This document shows positions 52,595-63,658 of a stretch of 64,000 nt of DNA, piece by piece; the stretch's first letter is position 1, and each line of letters starts with the position of its first letter. Origin of the DNA: Natrarchaeobaculum aegyptiacum (lineage in GTDB: Archaea > Halobacteriota > Halobacteria > Halobacteriales > Natrialbaceae). The notes under the pieces were generated by a model. It saw only the letters and a list, made by a program, of their open reading frames with translations, had not been told where the DNA came from and made no database searches. The position numbers and the translations under genes are program-made. Where the stretch lies: contig NZ_CP019893.1 of assembly GCF_002156705.1 (NCBI RefSeq), forward strand, positions 3,472,001-3,536,000, in the 5' to 3' direction.

Positions 52595-52769
52595 TGGGGT
52601 CGGAGGGATTTGAACCCCCGATCGACTGATATCTCCGGTGCGCCTCGGAACTCCAGAGGGTCATCACACGGACACTGATCAGGTGTCCGATCAGTATATC
52701 AGTCTGGAGTGTCGTCCCGGGCGCGGTGCCTCTGGAGTCAGTCGCCATGCCTGGCTTGGCCACGACCCC
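52595..52769 (-). tRNA. tRNA-Trp (anticodon CCA) with a ~101-nt intron
   Basis: The 5' exon (52732-52769, 38 nt) ends after the anticodon loop ...ACTCCAG, and the 3' exon (52595-52630, 36 nt) starts ATCAGTC and ends CCGACCCCA. Spliced, they give a 74-nt cloverleaf with acceptor GGGGTCG/CGACCCC and anticodon CCA. The intron sits between positions 37 and 38, the usual archaeal bulge-helix-bulge site. Confidence 0.93.
52631..52731 (-). ncRNA. tRNA-Trp intron with box C/D-like guide RNA
   Basis: On the minus strand the intron has a TGATGA box C-type element (complement of 52661-52666) and CTGA box D-type elements further upstream (ACTGATATACTGATC). In Haloferax volcanii the equivalent intron guides 2'-O-methylation of its own tRNA; I infer the same here. 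Confidence 0.7.
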
Positions 52770-53175
52770 TCGTCGTCCACTTGGTCGATCCCCCCTAAAG
52801 TGGTTTCGATTCGCGAGGTCGATCATCCCTGCTCCTCGAGGGTGGTCGGTAACGATGGGACCGAATCACTGACTCCCCGGGTTCCGGCACCGGCCCGTTG
52901 GGACCGGATTCCGTGAGTGGAATCCAGTGATCGGTCTCGGTCAGCTGGTGGAAGTTGACCGTAGTCCCTCGAAACTAGACACTGGTCAACAGCAGCTCCC
53001 AGAATATAATACACCCCGCTCACGTCCTCCAAATCCTAACCGTCTGAAAATCGGATGGGCGCTGCAGGCGATGCAGAGAAATGAGGATGGGCGCTACAGG
53101 CGTTCGGTATCTACCACGCGATTTAACGCAAAACCAACACGAGGGGCGGTTACAGTGCGATGGCCAATACTAGCC
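52770..53175. other. Intergenic boundary of the mobile island
   Basis: No gene is seen. Composition shifts from GC-rich to AT-richer towards 53000. A 17-18-bp direct repeat with one mismatch (GGATGGGCGCTGCAGGCG at 53053-53070 and a close copy at 53085-53102) lies just before the integrase and might be a recombinase arm site. Confidence 0.5.
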
Positions 53176-54195
53176 ATGCACACTGACCTCAAACCCATCG
53201 AACCAAGAAAAGCACTGGAACTGTATTTAGATGACCGACGTGGTGACTTAGCAGACTGGACACTACGGTCGCACCGCTCTCGACTCTCCACTTTCATCGA
53301 CTGGTGTGAGGAAGAAAGAATTGGAAATCTGAACGAACTCACAGGTCGTGACATTCATCGGTATAAGGTTTGGCGGCGAAATGACGGTGATCTGTCGAAG
53401 GTGACAGTCAAGACGCAGATAGATACGGTCAGAGTATTCGCAAAGTGGTTAGCCAGTATTGAAGGCTGTGACCCAGAACTACCCGCAAAAATCAAATCTC
53501 CTTCATTGGCGAAGGGCGAGAATGCACGATCTGTCGAACTTCATAGCGATGAAGCGACGAAGATCCTAACATACCTCGAAAAATACCACTACTGTACTTT
53601 GCCTCATGTCACTTTATCTTTATTATGGCACGGGCTAATGCGCCGAGGTGCAGTAAGAGCAATCGACCTTCGAGACTACTATCCAGATGAACAGTATCTT
53701 GATCTCAAACATCGTCCCGAATCAGATACGCCGCTAAAGAATGGAACTGGTGGAGAACGGCCAATCGCTGTGTCTGAGTCTGTCTGTGAACTACTAGATG
53801 ACTGGGTTGCAGATAAGCGGCCCAATTCTACCGATGAATATGGACGAAAACCACTTCTCGCAACATCACAAGGCAGAATCCATCTGACTACAATTCAACA
53901 GTACGTCTATATGTGGTCTCGTCCTTGCAAGTATGGTGCTGATTGTCCACATGATCGAGACCCCGACGACTGTAGCTCGGCCAATGAGCGTTATTCTGCG
54001 TCCGAATGCCCATCAAGTATCTCACCGCACGCTGTACGGCGAGGAAGTATAACGCACTGGCTACGTGAGGAGATTCCCCAACCGGTCGTAAGTGACCGTG
54101 CAGACGTTTCAGCCGACGTTCTTGACGCTCATTACGATGAACGCACGTCTCTCGAAAAAATGGAACAAAGAAGGAAGTTCTTAGACAATATATGA
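53176..54195 (+). CDS. Tyrosine recombinase / integrase 1
   Basis: The 339-aa recombinase has an N-terminal SAM-like DNA-binding domain (about residues 5-100, TLRSHRSRLSTFIDWCEEE) and a catalytic domain. The active-site arginine lies in LLWHGLMRRGAVRAIDL, the HxxR box is HAVRRGSITHWL, and the nucleophile tyrosine is in DAHYDERT. A Cys-rich insert (CKYGADCPHDRDPDDC, then more Cys) precedes the HxxR box. AT-rich codon use marks it as acquired. The ATG at 53176 is used because the conserved domain begins a few residues later. It likely mediates integration or excision of the island. Confidence 0.9.
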   Translation: MHTDLKPIEPRKALELYLDDRRGDLADWTLRSHRSRLSTFIDWCEEERIGNLNELTGRDIHRYKVWRRNDGDLSKVTVKTQIDTVRVFAKWLASIEGCDPELPAKIKSPSLAKGENARSVELHSDEATKILTYLEKYHYCTLPHVTLSLLWHGLMRRGAVRAIDLRDYYPDEQYLDLKHRPESDTPLKNGTGGERPIAVSESVCELLDDWVADKRPNSTDEYGRKPLLATSQGRIHLTTIQQYVYMWSRPCKYGADCPHDRDPDDCSSANERYSASECPSSISPHAVRRGSITHWLREEIPQPVVSDRADVSADVLDAHYDERTSLEKMEQRRKFLDNI

Positions 54196-54210: not shown

Positions 54211-55509
54211 CTAACGGTAGTTTTTAATATTTTCATTCTTACTACCGAAGAACCCATTGAATGGATTTCTAGTTCCAGTAGAACGCTTATTCCGCTTTTT
54301 CTTCCGTTTCTTTTTCCTTCGACTCTTTTTCCGACCGCTGTTCTTTCGCTTTGTCGCCTCAACCGTTCCTTTCGCAACCTCACCATCTATATTCGTGATT
54401 CTTACAGTCAACTGATATCCCTTTTTAACATCGCCATCTAATTCGATTCGTTCAATGTTATAGCCATTAAGATGTATAACTGGTCTTTCTTTCGGAACAA
54501 TCACTGGATCAGGGATTTTTATTAGATCATTTTCTTTGAGTATGAGATCGGTTTCAGGCGAATAGTTTCTTGCAGCATCTTCCACAGAATCGAAAGGTAC
54601 ATTCGGATATTGTAATTGGTTTGAATACATCGAGGAATCGGAACCAAGGAAGACTATAACCTTTTCTCCCTTCTGACCATGAGATATATGTAGGTGATCT
54701 TTGGGAATATTTTCTGAAAATGTAAGGAGATTCCCCTTACCATTCACTTTCTCTATCTCTACTTGTGCGAATTTCTCAAGTGGATAATTGTATTCCAATT
54801 CATTACTATCATTATCTTCTTCAGATATGGTTTCTAACTGTTGTGAATCTTCTAATTCTTTTGCGTATTTGAATAGCGATTCATTATACTCCTCTCCATC
54901 TTCGCCATGATGAACACGGAAGTGGCAGTTTGGACAGAGGGCGACAACAGTGTCAGGTTTGTCAGATCCCTTATCACTGAGTTCATGAATGTGATGGGCA
55001 TGAAGATAGGGTTCGCCCGTTTTGCTCGTAAATGGAGCTGGATTTCCGCAACCTTCGCAATTTCCGTTCGCCCGTGCTTTCACATACTCACGTACAGCAG
55101 AGGATCGTGTATACTCTTGTGTTGTTCTTTGTGTAGTCTGTACACTGATTTCATCAACGGATTCTTCAATCGCTTGATCTCGTAGTTCAGACAAATACGT
55201 TGATGTTGTCTCCGACCTGCTCTCTTTTTCTGATTTCTCCTGTGATTTCCCTGAGTCACTTGGTTGCTCCTTCTCAGACAAATTGATCTTAGGAGTGGTA
55301 GAACTCTTCCCGGCCGACGCTTCATCATCCATCCTTCTTTTCCCAATAGACAGTATTTCCTTGCCTCGAACAACCATACTGTCCAACTCAATGTTCATGT
55401 GGTGATCATAACTAGAAAGTCGTCCAGAAATTGGTTTAGATTCTTTTCGATATACAGTCACCTCCTCTCCTAGCATACTCTCTAATGCTTCAAGTGGAGT
55501 GTCAGCCAT
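54211..55509 (-). CDS. LSm-HNH fusion: Sm-like domain joined to an HNH endonuclease
   Basis: The 432-aa protein begins (residues 5-57) with an apparent LSm domain like the haloarchaeal Sm protein: PLEALESMLGEEVTVYRK, then the Sm1-type G-R-L-x2-Y-D-x-H-M-N-I-x-L and Sm2-type V-V-R-G-K-x-I-L-S-I. A Ser/Glu/Lys-rich linker (60-130) follows, then an HNH nuclease: Cys151-x2-Cys154, His170/172/173 (HAHHIHEL), Cys192-x2-Cys195 and His200, giving a zinc ribbon plus catalytic His. The C-terminal half has two stretches (about 247-288 and 343-386) with a TRAM-like beta-barrel look, then a Lys/Arg-rich run (389-408). It is convergent with integrase 1 (15 bases) and upstream of integrase 2. It is not a member of any published system I know; RNA or nucleic acid targeting is inferred. 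Confidence 0.82.
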   Translation of the reverse strand: MADTPLEALESMLGEEVTVYRKESKPISGRLSSYDHHMNIELDSMVVRGKEILSIGKRRMDDEASAGKSSTTPKINLSEKEQPSDSGKSQEKSEKESRSETTSTYLSELRDQAIEESVDEISVQTTQRTTQEYTRSSAVREYVKARANGNCEGCGNPAPFTSKTGEPYLHAHHIHELSDKGSDKPDTVVALCPNCHFRVHHGEDGEEYNESLFKYAKELEDSQQLETISEEDNDSNELEYNYPLEKFAQVEIEKVNGKGNLLTFSENIPKDHLHISHGQKGEKVIVFLGSDSSMYSNQLQYPNVPFDSVEDAARNYSPETDLILKENDLIKIPDPVIVPKERPVIHLNGYNIERIELDGDVKKGYQLTVRITNIDGEVAKGTVEATKRKNSGRKKSRRKKKRKKKRNKRSTGTRNPFNGFFGSKNENIKNYR

Positions 55510-55691
55510 ACCCTCATAACAGTTAGAAAATGGTTTAAACCCATCCTATAAAATTGCGATGAGTACCATTAATTGAGGAGAAACAGGTTTAGAATATATC
55601 CGAATACGTTGTAGTCTGCTATTCACCGTGAGTGGACGATACAGAGTGTGACACCCGTTATTGTAGGTCTCGATCTATGCTGAGACTGGAG

Positions 55692-56801
55692 TCACTCAAA
55701 GTCATCTACAACCTCTGTCAGTATTGTGGCATGCAATTTGCGTTTCTTTTCTTTATCTGTTTTATCGTAGTGTCGGTCGATAACATCGGCCGAGGCATCT
55801 ACATTATCAGACAGGGTTGGTCCATCCCATCCATTTTGGCGCATATATGTAATATATCCTTTACGAAGGTCATGCGGAGAACGTTTACTTGGACAATTCA
55901 TGTCTCCAGCAACTGTTGCTGGGCGGCAGGTATCTGGGTTCCTACCGTGAGGGCAATCTCCGATCAAACACGGGGCAGACCATTTATTAATTCGTGTCCG
56001 AACCGCTGACGCTGAAATCCGTCCCTGCTCAGTAGCGATCAACGGTTCCCGCCCATAACGATCAATCGTGTCTGGGCGTCTATGCTCAATGTAATCACTA
56101 AGCACCTCACATGTGCTAGACGAAATCGGAATCTGGCGTTCACTAGCAGTTTTGTTCTTCAATCGAGTTCCAGTCTTTGGTCGATGCTCTAGGTTAAGAT
56201 AGCCGGTACCATCTTCCAATTCTACGAAGTCGTCAATGTCCAGAGACCTTAATGTACAAGTCCGAATCCCAGTGTCGGTGAGTAGTAGCCATAGTGCATG
56301 GTCCTGAGAGGCGTAATTAAATCGTGAAAGGTGTGATACGACCTCTTTTGCTCGTTCTCGTGTCATGTACCGATCTCTGCTCTTGTCTTCCTCTGCTACC
56401 TCTATTTCCGGTACTTCAACCGAAAGTGCAGGCTTGACATAACCCTGTGATTCACAGTATCGAACAAAGACGCTGAGAGTCTGAAACTGAGTTTCGAGTG
56501 TTCGAGGCTTTACCTTCTTTTCCCTCTTTTCTCTGTACGCTTCCAAATCCTCTTTGGAAAGGTCATTCATATACTCGATTTCGTTATCATCACACCAATC
56601 AACAAATATTCCTAACCGCGACTCGTGGGATCTCATAGTCGATTCGCCGTTGCTCTTCGGGTTGACATCAAGGTATTCGGCCACTGCTTCTTCTGGAGTA
56701 ATTAGACTAAGGTTGAGTTCACTATCATCAATCTTACCTGTTCGGTAGAGGGCGCGGATAACCGCGTTCTCAACGTCTCCAGACGGGTTTTTCGATAACA
56801 T
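55692..56801 (-). CDS. Tyrosine recombinase / integrase 2
   Basis: The 369-aa recombinase is similar in plan to integrase 1: an SAM-like domain with MRSHESRLGIFVDWCDDNEI, catalytic Arg in LLLTDTGIRTCTLRSLDI, HDLRKGYITY as the HxxR box, and Tyr in DRHYDKTD. The Cys-rich insert before HxxR (CLIGDCPHGRNPDTC...) matches that of integrase 1 in spacing. AT-rich codons. With integrase 1 it frames the LSm-HNH gene. The two may belong to separate elements or act in tandem. Confidence 0.9.
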   Translation of the reverse strand: MLSKNPSGDVENAVIRALYRTGKIDDSELNLSLITPEEAVAEYLDVNPKSNGESTMRSHESRLGIFVDWCDDNEIEYMNDLSKEDLEAYREKREKKVKPRTLETQFQTLSVFVRYCESQGYVKPALSVEVPEIEVAEEDKSRDRYMTRERAKEVVSHLSRFNYASQDHALWLLLTDTGIRTCTLRSLDIDDFVELEDGTGYLNLEHRPKTGTRLKNKTASERQIPISSSTCEVLSDYIEHRRPDTIDRYGREPLIATEQGRISASAVRTRINKWSAPCLIGDCPHGRNPDTCRPATVAGDMNCPSKRSPHDLRKGYITYMRQNGWDGPTLSDNVDASADVIDRHYDKTDKEKKRKLHATILTEVVDDFE

Positions 56802-57019: not shown

Positions 57020-57190
57020 TTAGTCTTCGTCTTCAAACCACACTTCGGCTTCTTCTTCGTACTCAAAGGTTTGCGCTCGACCATCCTGCGGGATGCCTGT
57101 ACTTTCCCCAGTCGTGCCCGGTGCAGAGTCACCAACATCATGACTTTTGTCAGGGCGACGACCTTCTCCGCAAGCATCTTTCTTACCCAT
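57020..57190 (-). CDS. Small acidic protein in the island
   Basis: The ATG at 57190 opens a 56-aa ORF (MGKKDACGEGRRPDK..., then SHDVGDSAPGTTGESTGIPQ and an EYEEEAEVWFEDED end). A longer overlapping frame exists (56986-57177), but it is basic and unlike haloarchaeal proteins, so this one is preferred. No domain is recognised. Confidence 0.45.
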   Translation of the reverse strand: MGKKDACGEGRRPDKSHDVGDSAPGTTGESTGIPQDGRAQTFEYEEEAEVWFEDED

Positions 57191-57376: not shown

Positions 57377-57867
57377 CATCCGTTCTAGCTTAGCGACTAA
57401 CTGAGACGGTGATCACGCCGAAAATGCGTCGAGTCTCACCGCAATCATACCGAGATAGCTGCTGCTCAAGCAAACCAGCCGGTTCTTGGTCATGTCTCCC
57501 GTCGAAGGCGGCGCACTCGCAGTCGTGAGTGCGCCGCCGTTCCAGAGCCGTCGCTGACCAGCCTGGGCGATCCAGCCCGTCTCGTCAGGCGAGTTCGTTA
57601 CCAGAACTCGCCTGACTCCACCTGTTCACGTAACCTCGGACGGTGTGGATTTGGATCTCGTGACGACCACAGCAACAACGAATCGAGATCCGGTAGCTCG
57701 TACCCCAGATCCAACATCAGGTACAACTGGATCAGATGAGCGTGGCGTTCGACAGCGTGTGAACATCGTCGTCGAGGAAGCCGCGTCGACGACGCCGCGG
57801 CGTCGTCGGCGCAGTCTCGCTGCTTTGCGTCCAGTTTCTGGAGTTCGTCGACGATAACCCGGCTCAT
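57377..57867 (-). repeat. 491-bp IS-end repeat, copy 1
   Basis: Runs from the IS terminus CATCCGTTCTAGC to ...CGGCTCAT, an internal point of the transposase gene. It is directly followed by copy 2 and matches the corresponding part of the full IS (58359-58849). It contains the terminal inverted repeat and the hairpins CAGGCGAGTT/AACTCGCCTG and GGCGGCGCACTC/GAGTGCGCCGCC. Confidence 0.88.
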
Positions 57868-57870
57868 CAT
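57598..57870 (-). pseudogene. Truncated transposase 3' end, copy 1
   Basis: A 90-codon ORF identical to the C-terminal ~89 residues of the full transposase (SRVIVDELQKLDAKQRD... to ...VESGEFW). Its apparent ATG is made by the junction with the next copy. It lacks every catalytic residue. Confidence 0.85.
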
Positions 57871-58358
57871 CCGTTCTAGCTTAGCGACTAACTGAGACGG
57901 TGATCACGCCGAAAATGCGTCGAGTCTCACCGCAATCATACCGAGATAGCTGCTGCTCAAGCAAACCAGCCGGTTCTTGGTCATGTCTCCCGTCGAAGGC
58001 GGCGCACTCGCAGTCGTGAGTGCGCCGCCGTTCCAGAGCCGTCGCTGACCAGCCTGGGCGATCCAGCCCGTCTCGTCAGGCGAGTTCGTTACCAGAACTC
58101 GCCTGACTCCACCTGTTCACGTAACCTCGGACGGTGTGGATTTGGATCTCGTGACGACCACAGCAACAACGAATCGAGATCCGGTAGCTCGTACCCCAGA
58201 TCCAACATCAGGTACAACTGGATCAGATGAGCGTGGCGTTCGACAGCGTGTGAACATCGTCGTCGAGGAAGCCGCGTCGACGACGCCGCGGCGTCGTCGG
58301 CGCAGTCTCGCTGCTTTGCGTCCAGTTTCTGGAGTTCGTCGACGATAACCCGGCTCAT
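57868..58358 (-). repeat. 491-bp IS-end repeat, copy 2
   Basis: The same 491-bp unit as copy 1 with the same junction on both sides. It is followed without gap by the full IS. Confidence 0.88.
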
Positions 58359-58361
58359 CAT
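58089..58361 (-). pseudogene. Truncated transposase 3' end, copy 2
   Basis: The same 90-codon truncated frame as copy 1, with the same artificial start from the IS terminus. It has no catalytic residues. Confidence 0.85.
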
Positions 58362-59987
58362 CCGTTCTAGCTTAGCGACTAACTGAGACGGTGATCACGC
58401 CGAAAATGCGTCGAGTCTCACCGCAATCATACCGAGATAGCTGCTGCTCAAGCAAACCAGCCGGTTCTTGGTCATGTCTCCCGTCGAAGGCGGCGCACTC
58501 GCAGTCGTGAGTGCGCCGCCGTTCCAGAGCCGTCGCTGACCAGCCTGGGCGATCCAGCCCGTCTCGTCAGGCGAGTTCGTTACCAGAACTCGCCTGACTC
58601 CACCTGTTCACGTAACCTCGGACGGTGTGGATTTGGATCTCGTGACGACCACAGCAACAACGAATCGAGATCCGGTAGCTCGTACCCCAGATCCAACATC
58701 AGGTACAACTGGATCAGATGAGCGTGGCGTTCGACAGCGTGTGAACATCGTCGTCGAGGAAGCCGCGTCGACGACGCCGCGGCGTCGTCGGCGCAGTCTC
58801 GCTGCTTTGCGTCCAGTTTCTGGAGTTCGTCGACGATAACCCGGCTCATCAGCAGCGAGAGTGCTGCCATGATGATCAGCGCCTCGATGATGTAGGCGTC
58901 GGTCGTGTTGATCTCGTCCAGACCGAACCGTGATTTGAGTTCTTTGAACAGCAGTTCGATCTCCCAGCGCGCCCGATAGAGCTGTGCGATATCGGGCGCG
59001 CGGTAGTCGTCTCTCTCCAGATTCGTCAGGTACAGATGATACTCGCCGCTGTCATCGTTGCGAACGCCGACTAATCGGAAGGTTCGGGTCGCGCTGGCGC
59101 CCGACCCTCGTTTGCGGTCGAACGAGAGCGTGATCTGTACGTCAATTTCCTGTCGCTTCAGGTCGTCGAGGACGGCCTGCAGCGACTGGCCTTCTAGCGG
59201 AATGCTGTTCCCTCGCCACGTCCGGAGTTCTTCGACGATTTCGAAGTCTGCGTTTTCTTTGACGCGAGAGACGAACCAGCCATCATTGGCGTCAATGCGG
59301 TCGAACAGCCAGAAATCGTAGTAGCCGAGATCGAACAGAATGAGGGCGCCAGCTACCCACTCGCCGGTGGGTAGCTGGCTCCGTTCATGGGTGCTCGCGT
59401 CGGTCGTCCGAAATCGCGTTGGAAGTCCCGTTGAGAGCGATTCGGTGAGATGGAGTTTCGCCCCGGCTCGGTCATCATCGAGTGCGTAGACATCTTTGGC
59501 GTCTTGGTAGAGCGAGATGATCGTCGCGTCGACGATGAGGACGTCTCGAAATCGTTCGAGACGTCCGCTCAGCTCGGTTTGGCCGGTGTCGAGATTCTCG
59601 ATGGCCTCATCGAGAATCTCTCGAAGGAGTGCGACGAACCCTGGTTTGAACCAGCCGTGAAACGTCGCATACGAGAGTTCGTCGCAGTCAGCCATCTCGA
59701 CGTAGCGTTCGAGAAACGCCTGAATGGATCGATCAGAACCAGCGGCAAAGCCGAGGGAGAGCGTGTAAAACAACGCGACGACGTCGAGTTTCCGCTCTCG
59801 CTGGATAAGATTCGTTGCGCGAGCACGCTCGCGCAACTCATCGGATGGAAACGCTCTTTGAATTCGGTTCACAACTACTGAATCCGGTGGTTTGTACACA
59901 CTTCCCACCGGATTCTCACATTCCTAGTTACTGACGATTCTAGCTTGGCGTCTCTGGATACCCCGACCTGTTAAACTAGAACGGATG
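58359..59987 (-). mobile_element. ISH8-like (IS4 family) insertion sequence, full copy
   Basis: About 1.63 kb bounded by imperfect terminal inverted repeats CATCCGTTCTAGCTTA (58359 onward) and CATCCGTTCTAGTTTA (ending 59987, other strand). The transposase gene at 58580-59908 fills most of it. Flanking bases (CATATTCACTC on the left of the array, GTACTCAACTA on the right) show no clear target duplication, which fits a rearranged insertion. Confidence 0.82.
58580..59908 (-). CDS. IS4-family (ISH8-like) DDE transposase
   Basis: The 442-aa transposase has the DDE pattern of IS4: first Asp in RFRDVLIVDATIISLYQ, second Asp in ALILFDLGYYDFWLFDRI, and the catalytic Glu in YRARWEIELLFKELKS (Y-x3-W-x-I-E-L-x-F-K form). 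The C-terminal ~89 residues are repeated in the two upstream fragments. The ORF appears intact and could be active. It starts at 59908, close to the IS end. Confidence 0.9.
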   Translation of the reverse strand: MGSVYKPPDSVVVNRIQRAFPSDELRERARATNLIQRERKLDVVALFYTLSLGFAAGSDRSIQAFLERYVEMADCDELSYATFHGWFKPGFVALLREILDEAIENLDTGQTELSGRLERFRDVLIVDATIISLYQDAKDVYALDDDRAGAKLHLTESLSTGLPTRFRTTDASTHERSQLPTGEWVAGALILFDLGYYDFWLFDRIDANDGWFVSRVKENADFEIVEELRTWRGNSIPLEGQSLQAVLDDLKRQEIDVQITLSFDRKRGSGASATRTFRLVGVRNDDSGEYHLYLTNLERDDYRAPDIAQLYRARWEIELLFKELKSRFGLDEINTTDAYIIEALIIMAALSLLMSRVIVDELQKLDAKQRDCADDAAASSTRLPRRRCSHAVERHAHLIQLYLMLDLGYELPDLDSLLLWSSRDPNPHRPRLREQVESGEFW

Positions 59988-60453: not shown

Positions 60454-61896
60454 ATGTCCATATCTAAACATACTCAAAACCGTTCGACCGAGGATTCCGA
60501 ATGTAAAACATCCAGTACTAACCACCCACCCACCTTGTGCGGTATCGAGATTCCTTGGGAGGGTGAGAAAGATGAGGAGAAAAAAACCGAATTTGCCCGC
60601 AAAGTAAGGTACAACCCCGAGGGGTTGGCGTTATCGCAGGTAGTACGTTGGGTTTGGGGTGGCCTCGGCAGTAACAGAAAACACTATCGGATGGGTAAGC
60701 GCCTCTGCGAACGGTTTGATTTGCTGAAATTGGAGGATCGTGGTGATGAGGAGAGGTCTGACTATTGGGTCTATCCGTCGGTAGAACTGCGGAAGACGGC
60801 TGCTCTTGATATGGGTAGGGAACGGACAAGATCGCAATACGGCGGTGGGTCCAAGAGTAAAACGGGTGAGATACAATCTACGTTTGGTTCGGGAGACTGG
60901 AAAAATGATAATCGAGTCCACTACCCGAAGGATCGAGCGGTCCAGACTCCTAAGATGTTTAGTACGATTGACAATGAGGCAACTCGTGAGTACTTGGCCG
61001 GAGAACTAATGAACGAGATCGAGCATAAGAGGAATACAACACAAGTTCTCAGGCGGGAAAGTTTGGCGGGGGAGGACTTTGGACCGGAGTATATTTTGAA
61101 GCCAATGACAGATCGTTTTAGTGATGACTTTGAGGCTAAGTCGTCGTATGCATCGTTTTGTGGGGCTTTCGAGAAGGCTTCTGAATTATACATTATTGGA
61201 CAAATGATTACGTTGACGACGGACCCGAAGCGGTTTGATTCGATTGAGGAAATGTATGAGTCGTTGATGAAGAATAAGACCCGGTTCATGCAGTGGCTCA
61301 AGGATAAATTGGGGCGAGATACGGTCCCGACGAATCTTCACGTTGTCGAGTTTACTGATACTGGACTCCCTCACTTGCATTTGTGTGTGTTTGGGGTGCA
61401 TGTATCAGAGGTTCCGTCTGAGGCAGATGTTTCGGAATATTGGGGCGAGACGAGGGATCAAGGCTCTGAAGTTGATTGTCAGAGGATTCAATATTCTACT
61501 GGTCGTGACCGTTGGATTATGGGGAGTGGAGCTGATTTACAGTATTACTTGGCCAAGACGTATAACGATATGATGGCGGTGGCGAGTGGTGAGACGGAGC
61601 CAGAAAACTTTACTCATGGGTGGAAACTCGCCCTATATTGGTGTATGGAAATACAGGTCCACAATGGCAGTCAGGTGTTAATGGGCAACAGTCGTGATGA
61701 CGATGAAAATGGAGACAACGTGAAATTTTATTCGTATGAATTTGTGGGGGCGGCAAATATTATTGACATACCCGCCCACATAACCAATAAAGCCACATGG
61801 ATTAGTGATTTGGAGGTCATTGATAAAACAGAGTCCGATCCGCCGCCGTGTAGTTCGCGGTACATAGGGCATCCGCTGGAAGACCAGCGACGTTAG
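60454..61896 (+). CDS. HUH-type rolling-circle replication initiator (Rep)
   Basis: The 480-aa protein has the three HUH motifs of rolling-circle initiators in order: motif 1 MITLTTDP at residues 251-258, motif 2 His307-x-His309 in GLPHLHLCVFG, and motif 3 Tyr365-x-x-Lys368 in YYLAKTYN, the relaxing tyrosine. The N-terminal ~110 residues look like a winged helix (VVRWVWGGLGSNRKHYRM). Such Reps drive haloarchaeal plasmids and pleolipoviruses. The codons are AT-rich compared with the chromosome. The exact start is uncertain; ATG at 60454 is used. Confidence 0.82.
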   Translation: MSISKHTQNRSTEDSECKTSSTNHPPTLCGIEIPWEGEKDEEKKTEFARKVRYNPEGLALSQVVRWVWGGLGSNRKHYRMGKRLCERFDLLKLEDRGDEERSDYWVYPSVELRKTAALDMGRERTRSQYGGGSKSKTGEIQSTFGSGDWKNDNRVHYPKDRAVQTPKMFSTIDNEATREYLAGELMNEIEHKRNTTQVLRRESLAGEDFGPEYILKPMTDRFSDDFEAKSSYASFCGAFEKASELYIIGQMITLTTDPKRFDSIEEMYESLMKNKTRFMQWLKDKLGRDTVPTNLHVVEFTDTGLPHLHLCVFGVHVSEVPSEADVSEYWGETRDQGSEVDCQRIQYSTGRDRWIMGSGADLQYYLAKTYNDMMAVASGETEPENFTHGWKLALYWCMEIQVHNGSQVLMGNSRDDDENGDNVKFYSYEFVGAANIIDIPAHITNKATWISDLEVIDKTESDPPPCSSRYIGHPLEDQRR

Positions 61897-62155: not shown

Positions 62156-63658
62156 ATGCCCATCTCGCTTGACGAACTGGAATCTCATCTGTTCAAGTGC
62201 GCCGATATAATCCGAGACGCCGTTGACCCGACCGACTACAAGGAATACATTCTCCCACTCGTCTATTACAAGTCCATCTCCGACGAGTTCGAGAAGCAGT
62301 ACGCCGAGAACGTTGAGGAGTACGGCGAGGACTTCGCACGGCGGAACAACCTCTACGACATTCCAGTCGTCCCCGAAGGCTATCTGTGGGAGGACATTCG
62401 CGCAGTGAGCGACAACGTGGATCAAGCACTCAACGAGGCGTTCGATGCGCTCACCGAGGAAAATCCCGAACTCACGGGGGTCTTCCGCGCAGACTACATC
62501 GACGCCGACGCGCTTGATGACGACCGGCTCGGGAAACTCGTCGAACACCTCTCAAAACACGACCTTGACCGAGACAGCGTACCACCGGATATGCTCGGAG
62601 AGGCGTATATGGACTTGGTTCGCCACTTTGCGGAGGAGGAGGGCAAGTCTGGCGGGCAGTTCTTCACGCCACCGCACATCGTCAATCTCTGCGTGCGACT
62701 GGTCGATGAGTTCGAGGACGGCCACACATTCCACGACCCGACCGTTGGCTCGGGTGGGATGCTCATCGAGGCCGCACGCTACTACCGCGAGGAGCAGGGC
62801 GGCGACCCGACAAAGATGACCTTCACCGGGCAGGAAGTCAATCCAGACATTTCGGCCATCGCCAAGATGAACCTCTCCATTCATGGACTGGATGGGGAGA
62901 TCGAGCGCGAGGACTCTCTTTCGAGTCCCGCGTTCACCGACGACGACTCGAACGAACTCACACGTTTCGACCGTGTATTGGCGAACTTCCCGTTTAGTGC
63001 TAACTGGGCGAAAGATGATCTCCAAGATGATCCGTATGGACGCTTTAACTGGCACGAGAAACTGCCGCGTGCCGACCGAGGGGACTACGCCTTTATTATG
63101 CATATAGCGGAGCAGTTGAAGCGCCCCGGGCGCGATGAGACGGGGGGCAAGGCCGCCGTTGTCATTCCTCATGGCGTGCTGTTCCGCAAGCGCGAGGGGA
63201 AATACCGGGAACATATGTTAGAGGAGGATATAGTAGAGGCTATCGTCGGGCTTCCTGAGAGTCTATTCCAGAATAATTCAATTCCCTCCGCAATCCTTGT
63301 GCTGAACACGGGCAAGCCCGCTGAGCGCGAGGACGAGGTGCAGTTCATCCACGCCGCAGACGAAGCGTTCTACGAAGAGTTGTCGAATCAAAATGAACTA
63401 ACTGAGGACGGCCTCGACCACATCGTCGAGAACTTCCGCGAGTGGGCGACCGAGGAGCGGGTGAGTCGCACAGTATCGCTCGATGAGATTCGAGAGAACG
63501 ACTACAACCTCAATATCGCGCTGTACGTGGACACGACTGAACCGGAAGAGGATATTGACGTGGAGGAGGAACTGGTGAAGTTACGTGAGCTGCAGGCAGA
63601 GCGTGAGGAGATAGAGGCGACGATGACGGAGCATATGGAGGCGTTGAACTATGAGTGA
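62156..63658 (+). CDS. hsdM: Type I restriction-modification DNA methylase (HsdM)
   Basis: The 500-aa methyltransferase starts with the HsdM N-terminal helical domain (about residues 1-145), then motif I DPTVGSGGMLIEA, which binds S-adenosylmethionine, and motif IV ANFPFS (N-x-P-F), which binds the target adenine. It makes N6-methyladenine with HsdS and HsdR. The 3' end overlaps hsdS by 8 bases (ATGAGTGA). No hsdR is in view, so the restriction subunit may lie beyond the window. 61897-62155 shows no gene. Confidence 0.95.
   Translation: MPISLDELESHLFKCADIIRDAVDPTDYKEYILPLVYYKSISDEFEKQYAENVEEYGEDFARRNNLYDIPVVPEGYLWEDIRAVSDNVDQALNEAFDALTEENPELTGVFRADYIDADALDDDRLGKLVEHLSKHDLDRDSVPPDMLGEAYMDLVRHFAEEEGKSGGQFFTPPHIVNLCVRLVDEFEDGHTFHDPTVGSGGMLIEAARYYREEQGGDPTKMTFTGQEVNPDISAIAKMNLSIHGLDGEIEREDSLSSPAFTDDDSNELTRFDRVLANFPFSANWAKDDLQDDPYGRFNWHEKLPRADRGDYAFIMHIAEQLKRPGRDETGGKAAVVIPHGVLFRKREGKYREHMLEEDIVEAIVGLPESLFQNNSIPSAILVLNTGKPAEREDEVQFIHAADEAFYEELSNQNELTEDGLDHIVENFREWATEERVSRTVSLDEIRENDYNLNIALYVDTTEPEEDIDVEEELVKLRELQAEREEIEATMTEHMEALNYE

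What the first reader, a model, noticed from the sequence alone, without database searches (positions are those of the whole stretch)
54211..55509. LSm-HNH-TRAM-like fusion in an integrase-flanked island
An Sm-like domain (RNA-binding, normally a stand-alone small ring-forming protein) is joined to an HNH nuclease and to a C-terminal half with two TRAM-like stretches and a basic tail. It sits in acquired AT-rich DNA, between two integrases, near a Rep gene and a type I RM system. Domain order suggests a ring-forming or RNA-guided nuclease, possibly a defence or element-control factor. I know of no described system with this fusion.
Basis: partly seen in the sequence, partly recalled or inferred. 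Interest (0 to 1): 0.85.

Follow-up and report, generated by a model that had tools for sequence, protein, structure and literature searches.

The report
Haloarchaeal LSm-HNH nuclease in defence island
A gene on an acquired DNA island of a salt-loving archaeon joins an RNA-binding, normally ring-forming LSm domain to a DNA-cutting domain of the kind used in restriction enzymes; its relatives carry other RNA-binding-type domains in the same place, which points to an undescribed branch of anti-invader nucleases that may read RNA or single strands instead of modified DNA bases.

Summary
The ORF at 54211-55509 (-, 432 aa) is real. Its N-terminus is a complete LSm domain: both Sm motifs, and five of the six uridine-pocket residues. 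Residues 126-214 are a zinc-containing HNH nuclease of the EcoKMcrA (type IV restriction) kind with catalytic residues intact. The C-terminal "TRAM-like" claim is only partly supported: residues 249-293 reach TRAM profiles at borderline significance, the second stretch does not, and a strongly basic tail is present. The AT-rich island, two related tyrosine integrases, an HUH Rep and a type I RM operon are all confirmed. No other LSm-HNH fusion turned up in 125 family, 391 class and 345 phylum genomes (overlapping samples) or in collection scans. The HNH core belongs to a haloarchaeal clade in which the SRA reader of the wider family is absent and TRAM-like arrays, uS10-like, zinc-ribbon, HEAT or LSm domains take its place. 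These genes sit near restriction and defence genes more often than expected. I file it as a new variant of a known kind: a McrA-type HNH defence nuclease whose reader looks RNA- or single-strand-binding. An RNA-guided IscB/Cas9-like reading is not supported. Ring formation, RNA binding and substrate are inferred, and n = 1 for LSm itself.

The parts
54211..55509 (-). LSm-HNH fusion gene, 432 aa (P0001)
   Evidence: open in one frame, GC 0.41
55339..55509 (-). LSm domain, residues 1-57; K22, D35, H37, N39 and R48 of the uridine pocket kept, the Asp of the Sm2 RGD replaced by K50; loop 4 very short
   Evidence: PF01423 E 1e-8; PDB 5mki/6tfl; alignment A4; pocket residues as listed in PMC10779274
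54868..55134 (-). McrA-type HNH nuclease, residues 126-214; zinc cysteines C151/C154/C192/C195, H172/H173, N194, H196, H200
   Evidence: PF01844, EcoKMcrA 5e-18, invariant columns over 29 sequences, AF2 pLDDT > 90 and Foldseek 6ghc 6e-7
54631..54765 (-). TRAM-like beta stretch, residues 249-293 (borderline)
   Evidence: TRAM-family HMM, E 0.025 in about 22,000 ORFs
   Evidence: low-confidence AF2 strands; hhalign not significant
54283..54351 (-). strongly basic tail, residues 387-409 (KRKNSGRKKSRRKKKRKKKRNKR)
   Evidence: sequence
55534..55539 (-). TATA-like box TTTAAA, 25-30 nt upstream of the ATG
   Evidence: sequence; inference
52927..54195 (+). tyrosine integrase A, convergent with the fusion gene (16 bp apart)
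   Evidence: PF02899; 36% identity to integrase B
55692..56801 (-). tyrosine integrase B, upstream of the fusion gene in the same direction
   Evidence: PF00589 2e-11
52595..52769 (-). intron-containing tRNA gene (read as tRNA-Trp) at the left edge of the island
   Evidence: Rfam RF00005; sequence
60454..61896 (+). HUH Rep-like protein
   Evidence: PF23343 3e-6
62156..63658 (+). HsdM of a type I RM operon (HsdS, HsdR and a YgjP-like protein follow beyond the window end)
   Evidence: PF02384/PF12161; 85% identical to the HsdM 110 bp downstream of a TRAM-HNH gene in G154/L216

Best explanation
The gene is a mobile-island-borne defence nuclease of the McrA (type IV-like) HNH kind in which the DNA-modification reader has been replaced by an LSm domain. 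Proposed working: the LSm domain makes the protein a hexamer or heptamer and binds a U-rich RNA or single strand in its pore. The flexible linker, the C-terminal TRAM/OB-like segment and the basic tail hold nucleic acid. The ring thereby brings several HNH domains, whose monomers nick, together on invader DNA (or its transcript or an R-loop). Shown: LSm and HNH domains with intact key residues, the acquired island, a clade with swapped nucleic-acid-binding modules, and defence-gene neighbours of relatives. Inferred: ring formation, RNA binding, DNA as the substrate, and defence as the role.
For: LSm with K22, D35, H37, N39 and R48 kept (pocket from PMC10779274). HNH nearest to EcoKMcrA and ScoMcrA by sequence and fold and to PADLOC mREase_IV 7e-19, with zinc and catalytic residues kept across 29 sequences. 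HNH tree: a haloarchaeal clade (90/86) without SRA members holds LSm 1, TRAM-like 6, uS10-like 2, zinc-ribbon 1 and HEAT 1, plus one core of unassigned architecture; the LSm row is sister (95/80) to a protein with six TRAM-like repeats. The repeats match true TRAMs of the same genome by profile (prob 89, E 2e-6) and fold as a five-stranded barrel (pLDDT 83) whose best PDB matches are RNA-binding OB folds, among them the RlmCD-RNA complexes 5xj2 and 5zq0 and 1yez. The uS10-like N-terminus finds archaeal uS10 first. Four of 12 clade loci have an N6-methylase within 10 kb against about 0.14 expected. In G154 a TRAM-HNH gene lies 110 bp upstream of an RM operon like the window's.
Against: Only one LSm-HNH protein is known, so selection on the fusion cannot be measured. 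No experiment bears on substrate, ring or RNA. The Sm2 Asp that braces the pocket is Lys here. AF2 could not model the LSm or C-terminal parts (no homologues in the alignment; pLDDT < 50). Defence islands collect unrelated genes, so the neighbourhood is weak evidence, and the enrichment test was post hoc and includes the window itself.
Confidence: 0.5

Rival explanations
1. It is an ordinary modification-dependent (type IV) restriction enzyme: the LSm domain and C-terminal barrel serve only as an oligomerisation platform and DNA-binding surface, and modified DNA is the target, as for SRA-HNH, EVE-HNH and wH-HNH enzymes.
For: Nearest structures and PADLOC model are type IV enzymes. In the sampled loci most HNH cores of the wider family carry an SRA-like domain (124 of 171 distinct cores). 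[quoted passage not shown]).
Against: No modified-base reader (SRA, EVE, wH) was detected in the protein. LSm, TRAM and uS10 are RNA-binding folds with no known modified-DNA-reading members (own knowledge).
Confidence: 0.25
2. It is an element-control or DNA-processing factor of the integrative element: an HNH nuclease serving integration, transfer or replication, with LSm and the basic tail for RNA or DNA handling and no role in defence.
For: It lies between two related integrases, with a Rep gene nearby. Relatives L054 and L218 also have integrases of this family nearby, as does the more distant EVE-HNH plasmid locus L034.
Against: Most relatives lack a nearby Rep or integrase of this kind, and several sit beside RM, GmrSD, BREX-like or Hma-like genes instead. 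The HNH subfamily is the restriction one.
Confidence: 0.15
3. A recent accidental chimera with little or no function: an LSm gene joined to a TRAM/HNH gene by rearrangement in an island full of mobile DNA.
For: Single occurrence; rearranged surroundings with a 491-bp tandem triplication.
Against: LSm and HNH key residues are intact, the ORF is 432 aa without stops, and a TATA-like box is placed for a start at the LSm.
Confidence: 0.1
4. An RNA-guided nuclease of the IscB/Cas9/OMEGA type, with LSm holding the guide RNA.
For: NCBIfam IscB model hits the HNH (37 bits); IscB appears weakly in the fold search.
Against: No RuvC, bridge helix or other IscB region; score far below the 175-bit cut-off; HNH much closer to EcoKMcrA. 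The 182-nt upstream spacer folds no better than shuffles (z -0.24) and Rfam finds only tRNAs in the window.
Confidence: 0.03

Closest known systems
EcoKMcrA (PDB 6ghc), 5-methylcytosine-dependent type IV enzyme
   Same: Zinc-containing HNH domain, about 40% identical over residues 125-215; reader domain N-terminal to the nuclease
   Different: The EcoKMcrA modified-DNA reader is absent; LSm, a long linker, and a C-terminal extension of about 215 aa with a basic tail instead
SRA-HNH and PUA-wH-HNH modification-dependent enzymes (TagI PMC6212794, ScoMcrA PMC3009677, HhiV4I PMC10101028, HtuIII PMC11037411)
   Same: Same nuclease superfamily and modular logic (swappable reader + HNH); common in haloarchaea and their viruses
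   Different: No SRA/PUA or winged helix here; tree places it in a separate clade without SRA members
Archaeal LSm/SmAP proteins (PDB 6tfl Halobacterium, 5mki)
   Same: Complete Sm fold signature and most uridine-pocket residues; short loop 4 as in 6tfl
   Different: Normally a stand-alone protein of 60-75 aa; here fused to a nuclease, and the Sm2 Asp is Lys
TRAM-HNH, uS10-HNH and HEAT-HNH proteins of haloarchaea found here (L037/L054, L055, L035, L038, L004, L005, L039/L057, L060, L127, L036)
   Same: Same HNH clade or close to it, same linker start (ELR.A....V), same kind of island
   Different: Other modules in place of LSm, N-terminal to the HNH; no C-terminal extension seen in the members read
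CoCoNuTs (PMC11090510)
   Same: Type IV-related systems predicted to use RNA-binding modules
   Different: McrBC GTPase-based; no HNH, LSm or TRAM mentioned in that paper
WYL-HNH fusions (PMC4012209)
   Same: An Sm-like barrel (WYL) fused to an HNH nuclease, reported in a defence context
   Different: WYL is a ligand-binding regulator domain, not a true LSm

Membership tests
LSm/Sm superfamily | Sm1 and Sm2 motifs | tested here: met
LSm/Sm superfamily | Uridine pocket (K22, D35, H37, N39, R63, D65 in P. abyssi numbering) | tested here: met
   Five of six kept; D65 equivalent is K50
LSm/Sm superfamily | Hexameric or heptameric ring that binds RNA | not testable with these tools
   needs purified protein
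McrA-type HNH nuclease | C-x2-C...HH...C-P-N-C-H...H zinc beta-beta-alpha-Me core | tested here: met
SRA-HNH / PUA-HNH modification-dependent enzymes | SRA/PUA reader domain | tested here: not met
   no SRA profile match in P0001
Type IV (modification-dependent) restriction | Cleaves modified DNA only | not testable with these tools
   needs enzyme assay
TRAM domain proteins | TRAM profile match in the window protein | tested here: inconclusive
   residues 249-293 borderline E 0.025; Pfam none; hhalign not significant
TRAM domain proteins | TRAM-like repeats in the clade's other members | tested here: met
   hhalign prob 89; five-stranded barrel, PDB matches RlmCD and 1yez at weak E-values, TM about 0.5-0.6
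IscB/Cas9 RNA-guided nucleases | Split RuvC around HNH | tested here: not met
   only the HNH matches, 37 of 175 bits
CoCoNuT / McrBC | McrB-type GTPase partner | tested here: not met
   no GTPase in P0001; none recognised when reading the flanking ORFs, which were not all profile-scanned

The most novel reading that the evidence does not exclude
The haloarchaeal clade (LSm-, TRAM- and uS10-HNH) is an undescribed class of defence nucleases in which a restriction-type HNH is controlled by RNA binding: RNA-binding or ribosome-derived folds replace the modified-base reader. The enzyme would be a ring- or RNA-activated DNase (or RNase) that senses foreign transcripts or R-loops.
Probability: 0.27. 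Interest if true: 0.88.

Novelty: new variant of a known kind. Interest (0 to 1): 0.64.

Why it matters
All characterised readers named in the papers read here on McrA-type HNH nucleases recognise modified DNA. The LSm case adds a possible ring nuclease. It also offers a simple search rule: HNH cores of this clade with an unexplained N-terminus.

Tried and rejected
Close full-length homologues: none in viral contigs, genome contigs, plasmids or phages, nor in 125 family, 391 class and 345 phylum genomes, which overlap. LSm in viral contigs: none. Att repeats of the tRNA region within 31 kb downstream: none beyond chance. Structured RNA upstream of the gene: no; Rfam: tRNAs only. Direct hhalign of the two C-terminal stretches to TRAM profiles: not significant; a broader TRAM-family profile gave borderline support for the first only. 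AF2 on the full protein: informative for the HNH only. IscB/RNA-guided reading rejected for lack of RuvC. Paper searches for LSm/TRAM with HNH found no description.

Full report
What is there. The ORF 54211-55509 on the minus strand encodes 432 aa without interruption. A TTTAAA box lies 25-30 nt upstream of the ATG, as expected for a leaderless haloarchaeal start (own knowledge), so the LSm domain begins at the natural start of the protein. GC is 0.41 against 0.61-0.65 in neighbouring host DNA. The genome is that of a haloarchaeon: relatives in the same order include Natronomonas and Halorubrum, and two genomes of its family have contigs of the same lengths as the Haloterrigena turkmenica (413,648) and Natrinema sp. 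DC36 (320,393) plasmids, which suggests Natrialbaceae.

LSm domain. Residues 1-57 match Pfam LSM at 1e-8 when searched alone, the NCBIfam archaeal snRNP model at 4e-8, and solved archaeal SmAPs at 2e-8 and 8e-7 with both Sm1 and Sm2 aligned. According to PMC10779274 the uridine pocket of P. abyssi Lsm is His37, Asn39 and Arg63, supported by Asp35, Lys22 and Asp65. The window protein has K22, D35, H37, N39 and R48 (= R63); the Asp65 equivalent is K50 (alignment A4). Loop 4 is almost absent. The domain is intact enough to be called a true LSm; ring formation is inference.

HNH domain. Residues 126-214 are a zinc HNH closest to EcoKMcrA (6ghc, 5e-18), then ScoMcrA; PADLOC assigns mREase_IV at 7e-19. 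The zinc cysteines and catalytic His/Asn positions are invariant or nearly so in 29 diverse relatives. AF2 predicts this region and its flanking helices above pLDDT 90, and Foldseek returns EcoKMcrA and ScoMcrA. An IscB assignment fails: the match is confined to the HNH at 37 of 175 required bits.

C-terminal half. Pfam finds nothing and single-sequence hhalign comparisons with TRAM profiles are not significant. A profile of haloarchaeal stand-alone TRAM-like proteins plus RlmE/FtsJ-type TRAMs ranks residues 236-300 directly among genuine TRAM segments, at a borderline E of 0.025 in about 22,000 ORFs. The second stretch is only predicted beta-rich at low confidence. The tail 387-409 is almost entirely Lys/Arg.

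Relatives. No full-length homologue exists in the searched sets. The HNH core with its preceding 'ELR.A' segment is shared with a haloarchaeal set whose N-terminal halves differ: TRAM-like repeats (one to six copies; L004, L005, L035, L037/L054, L038, L039/L057, L040, L055), a uS10-like domain (L060/L042 from Halohasta and the viral contig L127), a zinc ribbon (L006) and HEAT repeats (L036/L056). The repeats match four true TRAMs of the window's own genome by profile (prob 89, E 2e-6, 56 columns). Modelled with their own alignment they form a five-stranded barrel at pLDDT 83, and the best PDB matches are RNA-binding OB folds (S1, IF1, cold-shock proteins, the RlmCD-RNA complexes, 1yez). These matches are weak in E-value, with TM-scores about 0.5-0.6. 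The L127 N-terminus finds archaeal ribosomal uS10 first, at 0.003, and seven of nine hits are uS10. Across 171 distinct HNH cores held, 124 carry the SRA-like domain, 9 TRAM-like, 2 uS10-like, 1 LSm and 35 other. The numbers reflect how the loci were collected.

Tree. In an HNH-core tree of 102 rows the LSm, six TRAM, both uS10, the zinc-ribbon and the HEAT proteins, with one core of unassigned architecture (L033), fall in one clade (90/86) without SRA members; the LSm protein is sister to the six-repeat TRAM protein (95/80). Three further TRAM rows fall outside that clade at unresolved or long branches, and the core is short, so the tree is rough.

Neighbourhoods. In the window the order is tRNA-Trp with intron, integrase A, LSm-HNH, integrase B, a DDE transposase with a tandem triplication, HUH Rep, then HsdM-HsdS-HsdR-YgjP. 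In G154 a TRAM-HNH gene lies 110 bp upstream of an HsdM-HsdS-HsdR-YgjP operon whose HsdM is 85% identical to the window's (HsdS, HsdR and YgjP of G154 by similarity of their starts, not profile-scanned). Others lie near DUF6884, TGT/DpdA-like, HATPase, GmrSD and GIY-YIG genes (L212), a type IIG RM (L215), a BrxHII helicase and Eco57I-type methylase (L056), an HmaC/DUF499 gene and GmrSD (L057), or an Mrr nuclease (L213). As a control, about 24 N6-methylase genes occur in 41.7 Mb of the 11 genomes. Four of 12 loci have one within 10 kb where about 0.14 is expected (Poisson about 1e-5). Leaving the window out gives three of 11 against about 0.13. The test was chosen after seeing the loci, and islands cluster such genes, so I use it as support, not proof.

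Function. The most economical reading is a type IV-like defence nuclease whose reader slot holds an RNA- or single-strand-binding module. The literature read here describes SRA, PUA, EVE, SBD and wH readers for DNA modification on HNH nucleases (PMC6212794, PMC7461809, PMC11037411, PMC10101028), a WYL-HNH fusion (PMC4012209) and RNA-directed McrBC relatives (PMC11090510); paper searches found no LSm-, TRAM- or uS10-HNH protein. This is absence from one open-access library, not proof of novelty.

Limits. The LSm version is a single case; selection, expression, oligomeric state, ligand and substrate are all untested.

Noticed in passing
window 57377-58851: Three perfect tandem copies of a 491-bp unit that includes the 3' end of the DDE transposase gene: a very recent triplication or an assembly artefact.
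   Followed up: partly
window 57020-57190 (-): A 56-aa ORF upstream of integrase B resembles the N-terminal part (HDVGDSAPGT.GES) of the haloarchaeal stand-alone TRAM-like family (L248-L251) but lacks the TRAM part.
   Followed up: no
L212:18564-18821 (-): A stand-alone island-encoded LSm protein (PF01423 8e-14) about 8 kb from the TRAM-HNH gene of G068, a possible kind of donor for the LSm fusion.
   Followed up: partly
L127:14961-15239 (+) and L056:2484-2924 (-): Stand-alone TRAM-like protein near the uS10-HNH gene on a viral contig, and a protein with a true TRAM match near the HEAT-HNH gene.
   Followed up: no
L060:249-1046 and L127:7524-8348: HNH nucleases with an N-terminal domain resembling archaeal ribosomal protein uS10.
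   Followed up: partly
L034:5065-6291 (Halobacterium hubeiense plasmid): An HNH of the wider family joined to an HTH and what I read as an EVE-like domain, with a second SRA-HNH gene 3 kb away.
   Followed up: no
L212:2739-8126 (+): TGT/DpdA-like, HATPase and GmrSD genes with DUF6884 genes: looks like a compact 7-deazaguanine-type modification/restriction island in a haloarchaeon.
   Followed up: no
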